Below, piece by piece: positions 23,858 to 28,759 of a stretch of DNA of 39,084 nucleotides (position 1 is the first letter of the stretch; each line of letters opens with the position of its first letter). Both the position numbers and the translations under genes were made by a program. The stretch covers positions 1 to 39,084 of the forward strand of contig NZ_WIVE01000040.1 of assembly GCF_009601025.1 (NCBI RefSeq). Reading direction: 5' to 3'. Under the pieces are notes generated by a model. The model ran no database searches and was not told the origin of the DNA. It was given only the letters and a program-made list of their open reading frames with translations. Origin of the DNA: Roseospira navarrensis (GTDB taxonomy: Bacteria > Pseudomonadota > Alphaproteobacteria > Rhodospirillales > Rhodospirillaceae).

Positions 23858-24163
23858 TTACTTGGCGCCGGTGTTGGTGCCGGACAGCACCGGCTCCACT
23901 TCGCGGTGCGGGCGGGCGATGATGTGCGCGGCCACCAGACCGTCGCCGACGCGCTCGCAGGCGTCCGCGCCCGCGCGCACGGCGGCGTTCACGGCGCCGG
24001 TCTCGCCGCGCACCATGACGGTGACGTAGCCCCCGCCCACAAAGTCACGGCTGACGAGGCGCACCTCGGCCGCCTTGGTCATGGCGTCGGCCGCCTCGAT
24101 GGCGGGCACGAGGCCCCGGGTCTCGATCATGCCAAGCGCAATACCGTACGGTTCCTGAGCCAT
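23858..24163 (-). CDS. csoS1: Carboxysome shell hexamer CsoS1 (copy 1)
   Basis: 101-residue BMC-H protein with the same pore (FVGGGY) and fold as copy 2 and a shorter tail ending GTNTGAK. The small positively lined pore of CsoS1 hexamers is thought to pass bicarbonate and RuBP while limiting CO2 loss. It lies 30 bp behind csoS4B. Two copies here compare with three (csoS1C/A/B) in Halothiobacillus. Confidence 0.97.
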   Translation of the reverse strand: MAQEPYGIALGMIETRGLVPAIEAADAMTKAAEVRLVSRDFVGGGYVTVMVRGETGAVNAAVRAGADACERVGDGLVAAHIIARPHREVEPVLSGTNTGAK

Positions 24164-24193: not shown

Positions 24194-24451
24194 TCAGGTG
24201 ACGGGGTCGTCGTCCCAGTCGTCGATGATGCCGCCGATGGCGAGGTCGGTCTGAAGCGCGGGGTCGCCGACCGCATAGCGCGCGGCCGATCCCGATACGG
24301 TGAACACCCACGATCCGGGACTGGCGCCGACCGTGTCCGTGGCTACGGCCAGCCCGCCCGAGGCGTCGCACAGCAGCCGCAGGTCCGTGACGCCGAGGCC
24401 GGGGACGCGGCGGGTGCAGACCAGGGAGCCGGTGACGCGCATGATCTCCAT
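24194..24451 (-). CDS. csoS4B: Carboxysome vertex pentamer CsoS4B
   Basis: 85-residue BMC-V protein of the EutN/CcmL family; pentamers cap the 12 vertices of the icosahedral shell. It reads EIMRVTGSLVCTRRVPGLG at the N-terminus, then VGASPGSWVFTVSGSAARY and AIGGIIDDWDD at the end. The ATG at 24451 is preferred. A GTG at 24454 overlapping the csoS4A stop by four bases is the alternative. Either way the two pentamer genes are coupled. Confidence 0.95.
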   Translation of the reverse strand: MEIMRVTGSLVCTRRVPGLGVTDLRLLCDASGGLAVATDTVGASPGSWVFTVSGSAARYAVGDPALQTDLAIGGIIDDWDDDPVT

Positions 24452-24705
24452 CACGCGCCCTCCTCGGGGACCCAGTGATCGATGATGCCGACGATCGTCA
24501 GATCGCTCGGGAATTCCTTGCTGCCGGCGGCGTCGCGCGCGGCTGAGCTGCCGACACAGATCACCCAGTCGCCCGGCGTGCAGCCCACCGCGTCCACCGC
24601 CACCGCCCGCGCGCGGCCGTCGCGCACGACCTGAAGGTGGCGGTGCTCCAGCCCGCTGATGCGGTGCGTCGCGACCAGGGGCTTTTCGACCTGATAGATC
24701 TTCAT
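24451..24705 (-). CDS. csoS4A: Carboxysome vertex pentamer CsoS4A
   Basis: 84-residue BMC-V protein. Family segments are MKIYQVEKPLVATHRISGLE, VDAVGCTPGDWVICVGSSAA and LTIVGIIDHW. The ATG overlaps the csoSCA stop (ATGA). CsoS4A and CsoS4B are normally both present in alpha-carboxysomes, and both are intact here. Confidence 0.95.
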   Translation of the reverse strand: MKIYQVEKPLVATHRISGLEHRHLQVVRDGRARAVAVDAVGCTPGDWVICVGSSAARDAAGSKEFPSDLTIVGIIDHWVPEEGA

Positions 24706-26378
24706 GCGTGGGTCCTCCCGCCGGTGCCGGTCAGGGTGGTGCCGGTCAGGGTGGTGCCGGTCAGGGTGTCGTGGACGGTGCCGCCGTCCACCTCCAGGGC
24801 GGCGCCGGGCACCGTGCAGTCCCGCACCATCCGCGCGGTGTGCAACCGGCCGGCGGCGACCAGGTCCGGAAAGCGCGCATGCAACGCCGCCTCCGTCCGC
24901 CGTGCGCGTTCAATGGCCCGGTCGCGCGCGCCGGGCACCGTGCCGTGATAGTCGAACCGCACGATCGCCGGCACCGGCAGGCCGCGCGGGGCGTTCAGGC
25001 CGCCCAGCACCTTGACGCCGACGTCCAGGTCGGCGGCGCCCTCCTCGACGGTGTGGAGGTAGGCGAAATAGGTGAGGTTGCGAAGCTGGATCTCCTCGAA
25101 CCCGATGCCCAGGCCGATGAACCGCTCGGCGTGGCCGATGTCGGCGTAGCGTCCGCCGTGATGGGCGGCCACCAGGTCGATCTGCGACAGGTTCCCGGCC
25201 ACCAGTCGGGCGCAGAAGCGCACCATGCCGTCCTCGGGCGCGGCCCCGCCGCGCGCGGCCAGACGCTCGCGGATCCACTGCGCCGCCGCCGCCTCGGGGT
25301 CGCCGAGCGCATGCCCGGCGTGGCGGGTGTCGGCATGGAAGTCCCGCACGTCCAGGGGATCGTCCAGGGCGATGCGGCCGTCCCGCCCGGGAATGTGCAG
25401 GCGGATGGCGTCGCTGTCCGTGTCCAGACCCACCAGCAGCAGGTCGATGGACGCGCCGCAGCAGAACCCGGACTCGACCGCCTGACGGAAGCCGTGCAGC
25501 CGTTCCAGGCCGGCGCGGGCGGCCGCCGTCGTGTCGCCCTTGTGGGCGGCGCAGCCCTGGGCGGCGGGATCGGATTCGCTGGTGTGGTAGACCACGACCT
25601 TGAGATAGCGCGTGGGGCGGTGCGCCGCCGTCGGCAGACCCTCTCGGTAGCGGTGCATCTCCACCTCAACCCACTTCTGCACGCTGTCCTCGATGTCGAA
25701 CAGGGCCCCGGCGTGGGAGCGACGACGCACGCAGCCGTAGGGCAGCCGCAGCACCTGCGAGATGACATGCGCCAGCCGACCGTCGGCGCAGGGCGAGATG
25801 TCCACGGTGTGAAAGCCGCAGTCGTGCAGGACCGCATCAAAGGCCGGGTCCGACCGCCCGCCCAGGGGATCGTCGGCGAAGAACCGATCGGCCTCGCGCC
25901 GCGCGGTCTCGAACACTGCCCAGGCGTACAGGGCGCGCCCGTCCAGGCCGTCCACCCAGGCCCGATCCAGGATCGGGGCCGGCAGGTCGAAGCCGAGTTC
26001 GGCGCGAGCGATGCCCTGGGCTGCGGTCACGACATCCCCCTGGCCAAGCGCGCCGGCGACCCGGCGCAGGGTGGGTTCGATGCGGTCGAAGGCGTCCTTC
26101 ACCCCACTGTCGTAGGCGAACAGGCGGGCGCTCTGGTCGGTCCGGGCCAGCGGATGCCGCCCGGTGGCCACGGTGTGCGCGGCGCGGTGGACCGTCGCCA
26201 CCTCCGCCGGAGCCACCGCCGGGGCCTCCGCCGGGGCCTCAACCGCGCGCGCGCGCTCGGGCTCCGGCCGGCGTTGGGGCTCGGTCGGAGCCTCCGCCGG
26301 ACGGCCCGGCGGCGGCGCCAGGGGCGCGCCGGACGAGGCCCAGAGCAGGGACCGCTGTATGCCTGTGCGGGGGATCAT
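24702..26378 (-). CDS. csoSCA: Carboxysomal carbonic anhydrase CsoSCA (epsilon/beta-type)
   Basis: 558-residue enzyme that makes CO2 from bicarbonate inside the carboxysome. Residues ~1-65 are a Pro/Ala/Arg-rich disordered leader, the region that tethers CsoSCA to RuBisCO in other species. The catalytic domain shows DISPCADGRLAH (zinc Cys197 with the Asp199/Arg201 dyad) and VVYHTSESDPAAQGCAAH (zinc His265 and Cys276, spacing 11 as expected). GASIDLLLVGLDTDSDAIR and LSQIDLVAAHHGGRYADIGH are also family hallmarks. The C-terminal domain is complete. Odd: the protein ends with three TLTGT repeats (538-552), not part of the normal fold. csoS2 is 12 bp upstream; csoS4A overlaps by ATGA. Confidence 0.96.
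   Translation of the reverse strand: MIPRTGIQRSLLWASSGAPLAPPPGRPAEAPTEPQRRPEPERARAVEAPAEAPAVAPAEVATVHRAAHTVATGRHPLARTDQSARLFAYDSGVKDAFDRIEPTLRRVAGALGQGDVVTAAQGIARAELGFDLPAPILDRAWVDGLDGRALYAWAVFETARREADRFFADDPLGGRSDPAFDAVLHDCGFHTVDISPCADGRLAHVISQVLRLPYGCVRRRSHAGALFDIEDSVQKWVEVEMHRYREGLPTAAHRPTRYLKVVVYHTSESDPAAQGCAAHKGDTTAAARAGLERLHGFRQAVESGFCCGASIDLLLVGLDTDSDAIRLHIPGRDGRIALDDPLDVRDFHADTRHAGHALGDPEAAAAQWIRERLAARGGAAPEDGMVRFCARLVAGNLSQIDLVAAHHGGRYADIGHAERFIGLGIGFEEIQLRNLTYFAYLHTVEEGAADLDVGVKVLGGLNAPRGLPVPAIVRFDYHGTVPGARDRAIERARRTEAALHARFPDLVAAGRLHTARMVRDCTVPGAALEVDGGTVHDTLTGTTLTGTTLTGTGGRTHA
24723..24767 (-). repeat. Three perfect 15-bp tandem repeats in the csoSCA 3' end
   Basis: The unit GGTGCCGGTCAGGGT (plus strand) occurs three times without a mismatch and reads T-L-T-G-T on the coding strand. 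It lies six codons before the csoSCA stop. The encoded motif resembles the V/I-T-G-T motifs of CsoS2. Confidence 0.9.
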
Positions 26379-26391
26379 GGCGTGGCGATCC

Positions 26392-28344
26392 TCAGCCTCG
26401 GGCCCCGCCGGAGACCGTCACCACGGCGCCTTTCTCCGTGTTGCCGCTGCTGCCGGTCACGAGAACGTCCGAGGCGCGGGCCGTGGCCGCGCGGTCGGCG
26501 GACGCCGCCCGCTGGGGCTGCCGGGGCGGAGCGCTGCCGCGCCAGCTCGGGTTGCGGGCGCTGGCCGAGTGGCCCTCGGTGCCGGTCACGCGGTCGCCCC
26601 GGTCCCAGTCGTCGCCGGTGATGCGCGGCCCGGTGTCCATGCCCTCGCCGGTGATGCGGGGGCGCGGGTCCTCCGGCACGGGCGGGACGGCCGACGCGGC
26701 CGCCGCCTCGGGTTCGCCCTGCGGGACGCTGCCGCCAGTCGCGGCGGCCGGCGCCTGCGGCGCGGGCGGGGCTGCGAACTCGATCGACACAGGCGCCGAA
26801 GCCGGAGCCGGAGCCGGAGCCGGAGCCGGGGCGGGCTCGGGTGCGGCCGGCGTTGGCGTCTTGAAGGCCATGGCCATCGCGGGCATGGGGCCGGTCGGGC
26901 GCGGCCGGCTGGGGTCTCTCGCCCGGTCCTCGGTGCCGGTGACCTTGCCCGCGCCCCGACTGAAGGTGCCGGAGATGGTGGCCCCCCCGCCCCGCGCCCC
27001 GGTCACGCCGGGCCGCGTGCCGGCGGTGACAGCGGACGGCGCGGGCATGGGTCCGCCGCAGGCCTCGGTGGCCTGCCCGGCGCCCATGTAGGGCGTGCCG
27101 GTGATGGCGTCGCAGGCGCCGCGGGCCGCGCCGGTCAGGCCGGTCACACCCGGTTGCAGGCCGGTGATGTCGCGCCCGGACCCGGCCGGACGCGGAGACG
27201 GGGCCGACCGGGACAGCGTATCATTGCCGCCGCCGTAGGGCGTGCCGGTCAGGGCGCGGTCCGCGCCGGCCTCGGTGCCCGTGACCCGTCCGCCATGGCT
27301 CATCCGAGGGCCGCTGACGGTCTGGCCGCGCGCGGTTTGGGTCTGGCCGGTCACGACAGGTTGGGGGGCGGGAACGGTGTCGCACACGGCCGCGAAGTGC
27401 TCGCCGCCCAGGTACTCGTCGCCGGTGACACTGCGGCAGCGGCCCGCCTCGGCCCCGGTGACGGGCACAGTGCCGGTCACGCTGGTGCGTGTGCCGGTGA
27501 CGGCCCGGCCGTGCAGGGTGCGCATGTCGCCCACCTTGCGGGGCGCGCGCGGCGGCTCGCCCTGGCAGAAGCGGTCGAACACCTCGCCCGCCATATAGCG
27601 GGTGCCGGTGACATCGCGGCACAGGCCGACCTCGGCGCCGGTCTCGCGCCCGCCGGGGCCGACGGCGGTGCCGGTGGTGGCGTCGGACGCGGCCCGGTCC
27701 GGGCGGCGTCGCCCGGTCGGGGGACTCTTGGGCGCCCCCGACCGGCCGTTGCGGGCGCGGTCCTCCCGCACGGCCTTGGACAGATCCCGGCCGCTGATGT
27801 CCGGGTTGAGCTGGCGCGCCACCTGGGCGCAGGCGCTGCCGCCCTTGTGGGTCTCGGTGCCCTTCTTGCCCGCCGTGCTGATGGCGCGGCGGCGGGCCTG
27901 GGACAGCATGCGGCCCTGGCTCATGTTGGGCGCCTTGGCCGGGGTCGCGGGCCGACGGGAGGGCATGGCCGACGGGGCCGGCGCGCGGGTCTCCGGCGCA
28001 TCATGGGCGGCGGCGGCCGGATCGGGCGACGCCTCGTGATGGGGCGCCGATGTCGGCGCGGCCCCCGGCCCCTGCTCGGGCGCGTCGGACCGGGTCCGTT
28101 CCGGCCGCGACAGCGCGGCCTTGCCCCGCCCGGCGAGCGCCTCGCGGCGGACCTTGGAGGCGGTGCGGGCGTCCCCGCCCTCCCGCGACGCGGGCGCGGC
28201 GGAGGCCGGACGGGTCGGCGGCGCGGGCGACCGGGACGGGGCGGACGGGCCGCCGGATCCGGACCACACGGCAGCCTTGCCGTGGATCTGGGCCGCACGA
28301 CGGGCCCGCGCGGCGGCGCGGCCGTTCTGCTCTGGGCTGGCCAT
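26392..28344 (-). CDS. csoS2: Carboxysome scaffold protein CsoS2
   Basis: 650-residue disordered scaffold that links RuBisCO to the shell. N-region: three basic helical repeats (around 12-25, 64-77 and 149-162; R-R-x-x-x-x-x-x-GK pattern), the RuBisCO-binding elements. Middle region (~222-470): repeats with VTGT, G-x-E-x-G-x-C-R-x-VTG and Y-x-G elements, e.g. GLCRDVTGTRYMAG, GRCRSVTGDEYLGG and GACDAITGTPYMG, with paired Cys. C-region: RITGEG, RITGDD, RVTGTEG and the conserved end LVTGSSGNTEKG...SGGARG, which binds the shell interior. It is shorter than the ~870 residues of Halothiobacillus, with fewer repeats. A Pro-Ala run (~501-518) separates middle and C-regions. ATG 28344 is 61 bp after cbbS. 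Confidence 0.95.
   Translation of the reverse strand: MASPEQNGRAAARARRAAQIHGKAAVWSGSGGPSAPSRSPAPPTRPASAAPASREGGDARTASKVRREALAGRGKAALSRPERTRSDAPEQGPGAAPTSAPHHEASPDPAAAAHDAPETRAPAPSAMPSRRPATPAKAPNMSQGRMLSQARRRAISTAGKKGTETHKGGSACAQVARQLNPDISGRDLSKAVREDRARNGRSGAPKSPPTGRRRPDRAASDATTGTAVGPGGRETGAEVGLCRDVTGTRYMAGEVFDRFCQGEPPRAPRKVGDMRTLHGRAVTGTRTSVTGTVPVTGAEAGRCRSVTGDEYLGGEHFAAVCDTVPAPQPVVTGQTQTARGQTVSGPRMSHGGRVTGTEAGADRALTGTPYGGGNDTLSRSAPSPRPAGSGRDITGLQPGVTGLTGAARGACDAITGTPYMGAGQATEACGGPMPAPSAVTAGTRPGVTGARGGGATISGTFSRGAGKVTGTEDRARDPSRPRPTGPMPAMAMAFKTPTPAAPEPAPAPAPAPAPASAPVSIEFAAPPAPQAPAAATGGSVPQGEPEAAAASAVPPVPEDPRPRITGEGMDTGPRITGDDWDRGDRVTGTEGHSASARNPSWRGSAPPRQPQRAASADRAATARASDVLVTGSSGNTEKGAVVTVSGGARG
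26801..26830 (-). repeat. GCCGGA hexamer repeats in csoS2 (Pro-Ala linker)
   Basis: About five consecutive GCCGGA units encode A-P-A-P-A-P on the minus strand, around residues 505-515 of CsoS2. Such a short tandem array can change length by slippage without breaking the frame. Confidence 0.8.
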
Positions 28345-28405
28345 GGTCGGCTCTCTCGGGCTGCTCAGGGGGACAGGGGCGACGGAGCGGGACGAACGGC
28401 CGGCC

Positions 28406-28759
28406 TTACCAGCCGCTGCCCCGGAACACGACGAACGCCGACCCCTGGCACTGGGTGTAGTTGTCGTAGCCCACCAGGCGCACATGGTGCCCGGGATAGG
28501 CCTGGCGGCAGGCCTCGCACTCGGCCAGCACGGCGTGCACGTCGGTCTCGCCGAAGAACGGCAGCTTCCACATGGGCCAGTAGTGGCCGATGGCGCGGGA
28601 GGGATCCTCGTGCTCGATGGCCGGGGTCCAGCCCTGGGCGATGATGTAGGCCGCCTGCTCGACGATCTCTTCGCGGGTCAGGGGCGGCAGGAAGGCAAAC
28701 GTCTCAAGAGACGCCTGCGTCTGGTAGTCCTTCATGGCCGAAGGCGCGTTCATGGTCAT
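28406..28759 (-). CDS. cbbS: RuBisCO small subunit (form IA)
   Basis: 117-residue small subunit that caps the CbbL octamer. Family segments are [60 protein letters not shown] and [20 protein letters not shown]. Length and sequence are of the carboxysomal form IA type. An ATG at 28753 (third residue) is an alternative start. It lies 58 bp behind cbbL and is followed by csoS2, the canonical order. Confidence 0.97.

What the first reader, a model, noticed from the sequence alone, without database searches (positions are those of the whole stretch)
24723..24767. CsoSCA carries a CsoS2-like TLTGT triple repeat at its C-terminus
Three perfect 15-bp tandem repeats add T-L-T-G-T three times directly before the CsoSCA stop. 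In CsoS2 the recurrent V/I-T-G-T motifs contact the shell. A carbonic anhydrase that has acquired the same motif could dock to CsoS1 hexamers by itself, giving shell anchoring independent of, or in addition to, its N-terminal RuBisCO tether. I know of no CsoSCA with such a tail. A chance slippage product is the alternative.
Basis: partly seen in the sequence, partly recalled or inferred. Interest (0 to 1): 0.85.

Follow-up and report, generated by a model that had tools for sequence, protein, structure and literature searches.

The report
Slippage-made repeat tail on carboxysome enzyme
The carboxysomal carbonic anhydrase of this bacterium ends in three copies of a five-residue repeat that looks like a motif the scaffold protein CsoS2 uses to grip the shell; it is most likely a recent accidental stutter in the DNA, though a cheap binding test could show whether it became a second shell anchor.

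Summary
The repeat is real: window:24723-24767 (- strand) holds three perfect 15-bp units coding (TLTGT)x3, residues 538-552 of a 558-aa CsoSCA. Correction: GGRTHA follows before the stop, over a Shine-Dalgarno-like GGAGG of csoS4A. The likeness to the CsoS2 shell motif is genuine at sequence level: LTGT occurs in 30 of 101 CsoS2 ORFs from other loci and, besides these, in this window's own CsoS2; CsoS1 keeps the contacted histidine. But no protein-level selection is visible. The only other CsoSCA-bearing genome of the genus held (79% identical over residues 67-539) lacks the tail, as do all 101 distinct CsoSCAs compared. The copies are identical base for base. Perfect tandem arrays with periods divisible by three are frequent in this genome (6 in a 454-kb sample), and the same gene has another array in its N-terminal tail. 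Five-residue spacing is absent from 1302 CsoS2 motif spacings, although copies 1 and 3 lie 10 apart, a normal CsoS2 spacing. Best reading: a young slippage expansion in a dispensable tail (0.75). Shell docking through the tail is possible but unproven (0.17); a published study already reports CsoSCA-CsoS1A contact without a defined peptide.

The parts
24702..26378 (-). csoSCA, 558-aa carboxysomal carbonic anhydrase
   Evidence: Pfam PF20687/PF20686/PF08936; TIGR02701 over residues 75-520
24723..24767 (-). three perfect 15-bp tandem copies coding TLTGT x3 (residues 538-552)
24702..24722 (-). codons GGRTHA and stop after the repeats
24714..24718 (-). GGAGG, Shine-Dalgarno-like site of csoS4A inside the last codons of csoSCA
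   Evidence: word found; coordinates read
24451..24705 (-). csoS4A, vertex protein; its ATG overlaps the csoSCA stop (ATGA)
   Evidence: ORF; TIGR02703; overlap -4
26201..26240 (-). second tandem repeat in csoSCA, 12-bp unit, in the N-terminal tail (EAPAEAPAVAPAE)
   Evidence: no exact repeat there and a shorter region in the genus mate
26392..28485 (-). csoS2 ORF, scaffold protein with 18 [VIL]TG motifs, including LTGT at residue 412 (start codon not verified)
   Evidence: PF12288; motif lists
23858..24163 (-). csoS1 hexamer protein, first copy; His80 in AAHIIA
   Evidence: NF053791
23498..23815 (-). csoS1 hexamer protein, second copy; His80 in AAHIIA
   Evidence: ORF; NF053791

Best explanation
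The array is a recent in-frame replication-slippage expansion of a 15-bp unit in the last codons of csoSCA. It lies beyond the conserved CsoSCA fold, in a short variable tail that tolerates added residues, just upstream of the csoS4A ribosome-binding site, and it simply lengthens a flexible tail. The enzyme is most likely packaged as in other alpha-carboxysomes, through its N-terminal tail and non-specific shell contacts. Shown here: position, perfect identity of the copies, absence in the one genus mate and in the sampled homologues, and a background of such arrays in the genome. Inferred: slippage as the mutational cause, flexibility of the tail, and absence of function.
For: Copies are identical over 45 bp. 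Codons 75-537 of the same gene share only 69% of third positions with the genus mate, so copies as old as that split would show no third-position difference with probability about 0.025, unless homogenised. The genus mate L004/L007 reads GTVHD-LIGAGMAA where the window reads GTVHD-(TLTGT)x3-GGRTHA. Of 101 distinct CsoSCAs, 0 have LTG in the tail and none has an exact tandem repeat of 4-8 residues there; the window tail after the RD anchor is 38 residues against a median of 22 and a maximum of 33. The own genome has 6 perfect arrays of 3 or more copies (period 9-60) in 453,795 sampled bases, with periods 9, 12 or 24; all 22 arrays of 2 or more copies with period 12-60 have periods divisible by 3; the Markov control gave 0 in both. 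The same gene holds a 12-bp array near its N-terminus and csoS2 a PAPAPA array. TIGR02701 ends at residue 520 and alignments to solved CsoSCA structures end at 521 or earlier. H. neapolitanus CsoSCA has been used with C-terminal FLAG and His6 tags and as CsoSCA-sfGFP (PMC10614612 passages; PMC12646314 section 6), so its C-terminus tolerates additions.
Against: The repeated unit matches a functional motif of the partner scaffold. Only 15 of 1688 tail pentamers of homologues (0.9%), and 994 of 284,629 pentamers of long genome ORFs (0.35%; some in wrong frames), would give [IVL]TG if tandemly repeated, so the coincidence is uncommon, although it was noticed after the fact. Copies 1 and 3 are 10 residues apart, a normal CsoS2 spacing. 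Only one close relative was available, so a young adaptive gain cannot be excluded. Low pLDDT at residues 523-558 is no proof of disorder: the model is poor overall and 409-465, inside the conserved fold, is equally low.
Confidence: 0.75

Rival explanations
1. The tail is a shell anchor that mimics CsoS2. If this CsoSCA is a trimer of dimers like that of H. neapolitanus, six tails are displayed. In each, LTG copies 1 and 3 (10 residues apart) would sit on CsoS1 edges near the conserved histidine, giving avidity and fixing the enzyme on the inner facet, in addition to Rubisco tethering at the N-terminus.
For: LTGT is a natural variant in CsoS2 (30 of 101 ORFs) and is present at residue 412 of the window's own CsoS2, 11 residues after VTGT. 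Both CsoS1 copies keep His in AAHIIA (His80 here; equated by me with His79 of PMC10484944). 642 of 1302 CsoS2 spacings are 10 or 11. Besides CsoS2-like ORFs and two presumed wrong-frame ORFs, this CsoSCA is the only one of 8434 scanned ORFs with three [VIL]TG in 30 residues. Precedent: a handful of Prochlorococcus CsoSCAs carry the CsoS2 Rubisco-binding motif (PMC10614612 passage).
Against: Absent from the genus mate and from 101 of 101 homologues. Neighbour spacing of 5 occurs in 0 of 1302 CsoS2 spacings. No Tyr in the tail, while Y matters with VTG in CsoS2 (PMC11365436). No sign of selection. H. neapolitanus CsoSCA is reported to contact CsoS1A with no defined peptide (PMC12646314), so a motif is not needed.
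Confidence: 0.17
2. The DNA is under selection for expression: the array spaces or structures the mRNA ahead of the csoS4A start and changes the csoSCA to csoS4A translation ratio.
For: csoSCA stop and csoS4A start overlap (ATGA), and GGAGG lies in the last csoSCA codons. An SD-like word of 4 or more bases lies in the last codons of 79 of 102 csoSCA genes against 168 of 408 control windows further upstream, so the gene end does carry a ribosome-binding site in many relatives.
Against: The mRNA around the junction folds no better than shuffles (z = 0.76; 154 of 200 shuffles fold at least as well). The array lies upstream of the SD and does not change SD-to-start spacing. The genus mate lacks the array and keeps the overlap.
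Confidence: 0.05
3. The unit was copied from csoS2 by recombination rather than produced by slippage of a local sequence.
For: Four places in csoS2 match the 15-bp unit with 2-3 mismatches, the best (2 mismatches) at 27241-27255; in the whole window 18 matches against 3.55 expected.
Against: No other place in the genome matches two units within 3 mismatches. The genus mate has a related local stretch (D-LIGAG against D-LTGTG). Local slippage needs no donor.
Confidence: 0.03

Closest known systems
CsoS2 [IV]TG shell-binding motif (alpha-carboxysome scaffold; PMC10484944, PMC11365436)
   Same: x-T-G-T core with an aliphatic first residue, in a flexible part of a protein of the same operon; LTGT itself occurs in CsoS2
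   Different: Leu instead of Ile/Val; neighbours 5 apart instead of about 8 (paper) or mostly 11; no Tyr; one recent array instead of diverged conserved repeats; on the enzyme, not the scaffold
CsoSCA of known structure (2FGY from Halothiobacillus neapolitanus, 8THM from Cyanobium; organisms from PMC12918739 passages)
   Same: Conserved N, catalytic and C domains
   Different: The TLTGT tail lies beyond the aligned region (alignments stop at residue 521 or earlier)
Prochlorococcus CsoSCA with a CsoS2-type Rubisco-binding motif (PMC10614612, passage)
   Same: A CsoS2 short linear motif appearing on CsoSCA
   Different: A different, Rubisco-binding motif; reported in a handful of Prochlorococcus sequences; discussed there for the N-terminal region

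Membership tests
CsoSCA (TIGR02701) | Equivalog profile above curated cut-off, all three Pfam domains | tested here: met
   551 bits against 241; PF20687, PF20686 and PF08936 all above cut-off
CsoSCA (TIGR02701) | Place in cso operon between csoS2 and csoS4A | tested here: met
CsoS2 [IV]TG shell motif | I or V before TG | tested here: not met
   Residue is Leu; Leu precedes TG in 114 of 1731 CsoS2 TG sites against 1289 for V or I, so it is a minority variant
CsoS2 [IV]TG shell motif | Regular spacing (about 8 in the C-region by PMC10484944; mostly 11 in the CsoS2 ORFs here) | tested here: inconclusive
   Neighbours at 5: 0 of 1302 CsoS2 spacings; copies 1 and 3 at 10: spacings of 10 or 11 are 642 of 1302
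CsoS2 [IV]TG shell motif | Conservation across relatives | tested here: not met
   0 of 101 distinct homologues have LTG in the tail; [IV]TG in 3 of 101, one of these (L104) directly at the anchor; absent in genus mate
CsoS2 [IV]TG shell motif | Binding to CsoS1 beside the conserved His | not testable with these tools
   No complex prediction or assay available; His80 present in both CsoS1 copies
In-frame slippage minisatellite | Near-identical tandem units, period divisible by 3 in a coding region, lineage-specific, background in the genome | tested here: met

The most novel reading that the evidence does not exclude
A slippage event recently gave a carboxysomal carbonic anhydrase a multivalent CsoS2-like shell-binding tail, so that the hexamer docks on CsoS1 facets through six (TLTGT)3 tails: a caught-in-the-act birth of a cargo-to-shell linear motif.
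Probability: 0.17. Interest if true: 0.7.

Novelty: new variant of a known kind. Interest (0 to 1): 0.3.

Why it matters
How carbonic anhydrase is placed inside alpha-carboxysomes is debated: an N-terminal Rubisco tether (PMC10614612) or direct, apparently non-specific shell contact (PMC12646314). A natural CsoSCA with a shell-motif-like tail next to a genus mate without it is a ready-made pair for testing whether an added [VIL]TG tail moves the enzyme to the shell, and a possible short cargo tag for engineering. If it is only slippage, as I think likelier, it is a useful caution that motif mimicry can arise in the flexible tails of a genome rich in short tandem arrays.

Tried and rejected
Gene conversion from csoS2: rejected as likely source. 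mRNA structure at the junction: no signal (z 0.76). Search of viral contigs for relatives: none confirmed. Structure model of CsoSCA from a 10-sequence alignment: mean pLDDT 56; residues 523-558 are below 50, but so is 409-465 of the conserved fold, so the model cannot place the tail or prove it disordered. I ran no fold search on it. Enrichment of any x-T-G in homologue tails (21 of 101 against 11.0 +/- 2.9 in shuffles) was not taken as evidence: the homologues are related and several sites lie directly at the anchor. A tree of the 102 sequences joins the window with L007 and then with the four cyanobacterial sequences (support 0.898); not used further.

Limits of the survey. It rests on (4 of 297 genomes matched; 10 loci; 2 of 6; 1 of 55; 3 of 398, one weak; 2 plasmids; 21 of 200, one weak; 1 of 18; 69 of 369); the sets overlap, and searches count this genome itself. 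Dropped before the count of 101: the window's own copies (L001, L003), L004 (same as L007 in the last 300 residues), the weak hits L018 and L038, and partial copies in G1042, G988 (second place) and G1196 (second place), which were not fetched. L066 and L098 are in the count although the search reports a stop inside their match. Two homologues found later (2 new among 3 of 385) are not in the 101: L150 ends without the motif; the tail of L151 was not resolved. Cyanobacteria are represented by four loci. The 101 CsoS2 ORFs do not include the window's own, include both L004 and L007, and 89 of 101 reach the upstream edge of their locus, so most are incomplete. Tail lengths depend on one MAFFT alignment.

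Full report
Observation. The window's csoSCA (24702-26378, - strand) codes for a 558-aa protein with all three CsoSCA Pfam domains and a TIGR02701 score of 551 against a cut-off of 241. Its 3' end holds a 15-bp unit in three perfect copies at 24723-24767, the highest-scoring of 13 tandem-repeat rows in the window. The protein ends ...VDGGTVHD-TLTGT-TLTGT-TLTGT-GGRTHA, so the repeats are residues 538-552 and six residues follow before the stop. The stop overlaps the csoS4A start (ATGA), and GGAGG, a likely csoS4A ribosome-binding site, lies in the codons of GGRTHA. Such an overlap is common: 79 of 102 csoSCA genes have an SD-like word of 4 or more bases in their last codons against 168 of 408 control windows further upstream in the same genes.

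Chance and mutational background. In 40 stretches of the same genome (453,795 bases) I found 6 perfect arrays of 3 or more copies with period 9-60; the periods are 9, 12 and 24. A first-order Markov copy of the sample had none. That is about 13 per Mb, or about 0.5 expected in a 39-kb window, so one such array is not surprising. The sampled arrays lie in long ORFs and read as low-complexity peptide, though the true frame was not verified for each. CsoSCA has a second array in its N-terminal tail (EAPAEAPAVAPAE), and CsoS2 has a PAPAPA array.

Relatives. Of the 6 genomes of the genus held, 2 have CsoSCA: this one and G130, whose protein (L004) is identical over the last 300 residues to locus L007 of a Rhodospira sp. 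MAG. Identity to the window is 79% over residues 67-539. This genus mate ends GTVHD-LIGAGMAA. Among 101 distinct homologues, most of them from the class of G515 (not named by the tool; I take it to be Gammaproteobacteria), none has LTG in the tail, none has an exact tandem repeat of 4-8 residues there, and none has a tail as long (38 residues after the RD anchor; median 22, maximum 33). Three have [IV]TG after the anchor; two of these, L056 (TTVTGAH) and L090 (RVTGSE), are in the true tail. L005 of the same order ends AATGTGGH, with GGAGG in its last codons too. A single x-TGTGG next to the ribosome-binding site may be the kind of seed that was expanded (inference).

Age. The three copies are identical at all 45 bases. 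Third positions in codons 75-537 agree with the genus mate at 69%, so copies as old as that split would agree at all 10 compared third positions with probability about 0.025, if not homogenised. The array looks young, and selection on it cannot be measured.

Resemblance to CsoS2. PMC10484944 (abstract and sections 8 and 9 read) reports a repeating [IV]TG motif that contacts CsoS1A His79, about every 8 residues in the CsoS2 C-region. PMC11365436 (abstract and sections 4 and 5 read) shows that VTG and Tyr in the middle region matter for growth and CsoS1A binding. In 101 CsoS2 ORFs of the other fetched loci (89 of them open at the locus edge), TG is preceded by V 905, I 384, M 121 and L 114 times of 1731. 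LTGT occurs 41 times in 30 of the 101, 29 of the 41 lying 10-11 residues from another motif. The window's own CsoS2, not among the 101, has LTGT at residue 412, 11 residues after VTGT. Of 1302 spacings between successive [VIL]TG in the 101, 642 are 10 or 11, 5 are below 5 and none is 5; the window's CsoS2 has spacings from 3 to 96, none of 5. Copies 1 and 3 of the tail are 10 apart. Both CsoS1 proteins keep His in AAHIIA (His80). A scan of 8434 stop-to-stop ORFs for three [VIL]TG within 30 residues, leaving out the CsoS2 ORFs already identified, found five: the window's CsoS2, this CsoSCA, an ORF of L094 that ends just before its csoSCA and is probably csoS2, L049 on the strand opposite to the operon, and L132, an ORF on the strand opposite to the longest ORF there. 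So the likeness is specific, but the three copies are one event. 15 of 1688 pentamers from homologue tails would give [IVL]TG if repeated; a coincidence at the 1% level, noticed after the fact, is modest evidence.

What is known of CsoSCA placement. [quoted passage not shown] a handful of Prochlorococcus CsoSCAs carry the CsoS2 Rubisco motif. PMC12646314 (abstract, sections 6 and 10): H. neapolitanus CsoSCA enters CsoS1A-CsoS4A minishells without CsoS2, by contacts judged non-specific, and its C-terminal domain is largely buried in the hexamer. So shell contact by CsoSCA does not need a motif, and the published C-terminal tags suggest that a longer tail is tolerated. A 2026 review (PMC12918739, passages) calls the function of the C-terminal domain unknown.

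Print. Searches of the held library gave listings of 20, 10, 12, 10 and 10 papers (of 97, 25, 13, 68 and 842 that matched), in whose titles and abstract starts I saw no report of a CsoS2-like C-terminal repeat on CsoSCA. Only the papers named above, and PMC10938918 (passages), were opened, so absence from print is not shown.

Verdict. I put 0.75 on a young slippage product without selected function and 0.17 on a working shell anchor.

Noticed in passing
window:26201-26240: A second array (12-bp unit, about 3.3 copies, EAPAEAPAVAPAE) in the N-terminal tail of the same csoSCA; the region is shorter and without the exact repeat in the genus mate.
   Followed up: partly
window:26340-26354 (CsoSCA residues 9-13) and N-termini of homologues: An R-S/N-x-x-W word (RSLLW here; RSLFW, RNICW, RSIAW and others) recurs in the otherwise poorly conserved N-terminal segment of 13 of 102 CsoSCAs, window and L007 included (no chance control run); a possible Rubisco-binding motif, where PMC10614612 found no convincing proteobacterial motif.
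   Followed up: partly
window:24702-24722 and homologues: An SD-like word for csoS4A lies in the last codons of 79 of 102 csoSCA genes against 168 of 408 control windows, so the common ...EAH/GGH endings may be set by the ribosome-binding site rather than by the protein.
   Followed up: partly
window:26392-28485: CsoS2 scores far below the NCBIfam equivalog cut-offs (275 against 1100 and 233 against 850), though PF12288 matches; perhaps a divergent, short CsoS2.
   Followed up: no
window:21802-22812 and 3' part of window:21407-23131: A Na+-bicarbonate transporter (PF05982, SbtA type) next to a P-II domain (PF00543): an SbtA-SbtB-like pair beside the cso operon (SbtB is my naming).
   Followed up: partly
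window:19158-20135: A BMC-domain shell protein (PF00936; best NCBIfam match CcmP, below cut-off), probably CsoS1D (my inference).
   Followed up: no
window:211-1479: Phage-type tyrosine integrase at the edge of the window; together with the rarity of CsoSCA in the order (4 of 297 genomes, this one included) this may point to mobility of the region.
   Followed up: no
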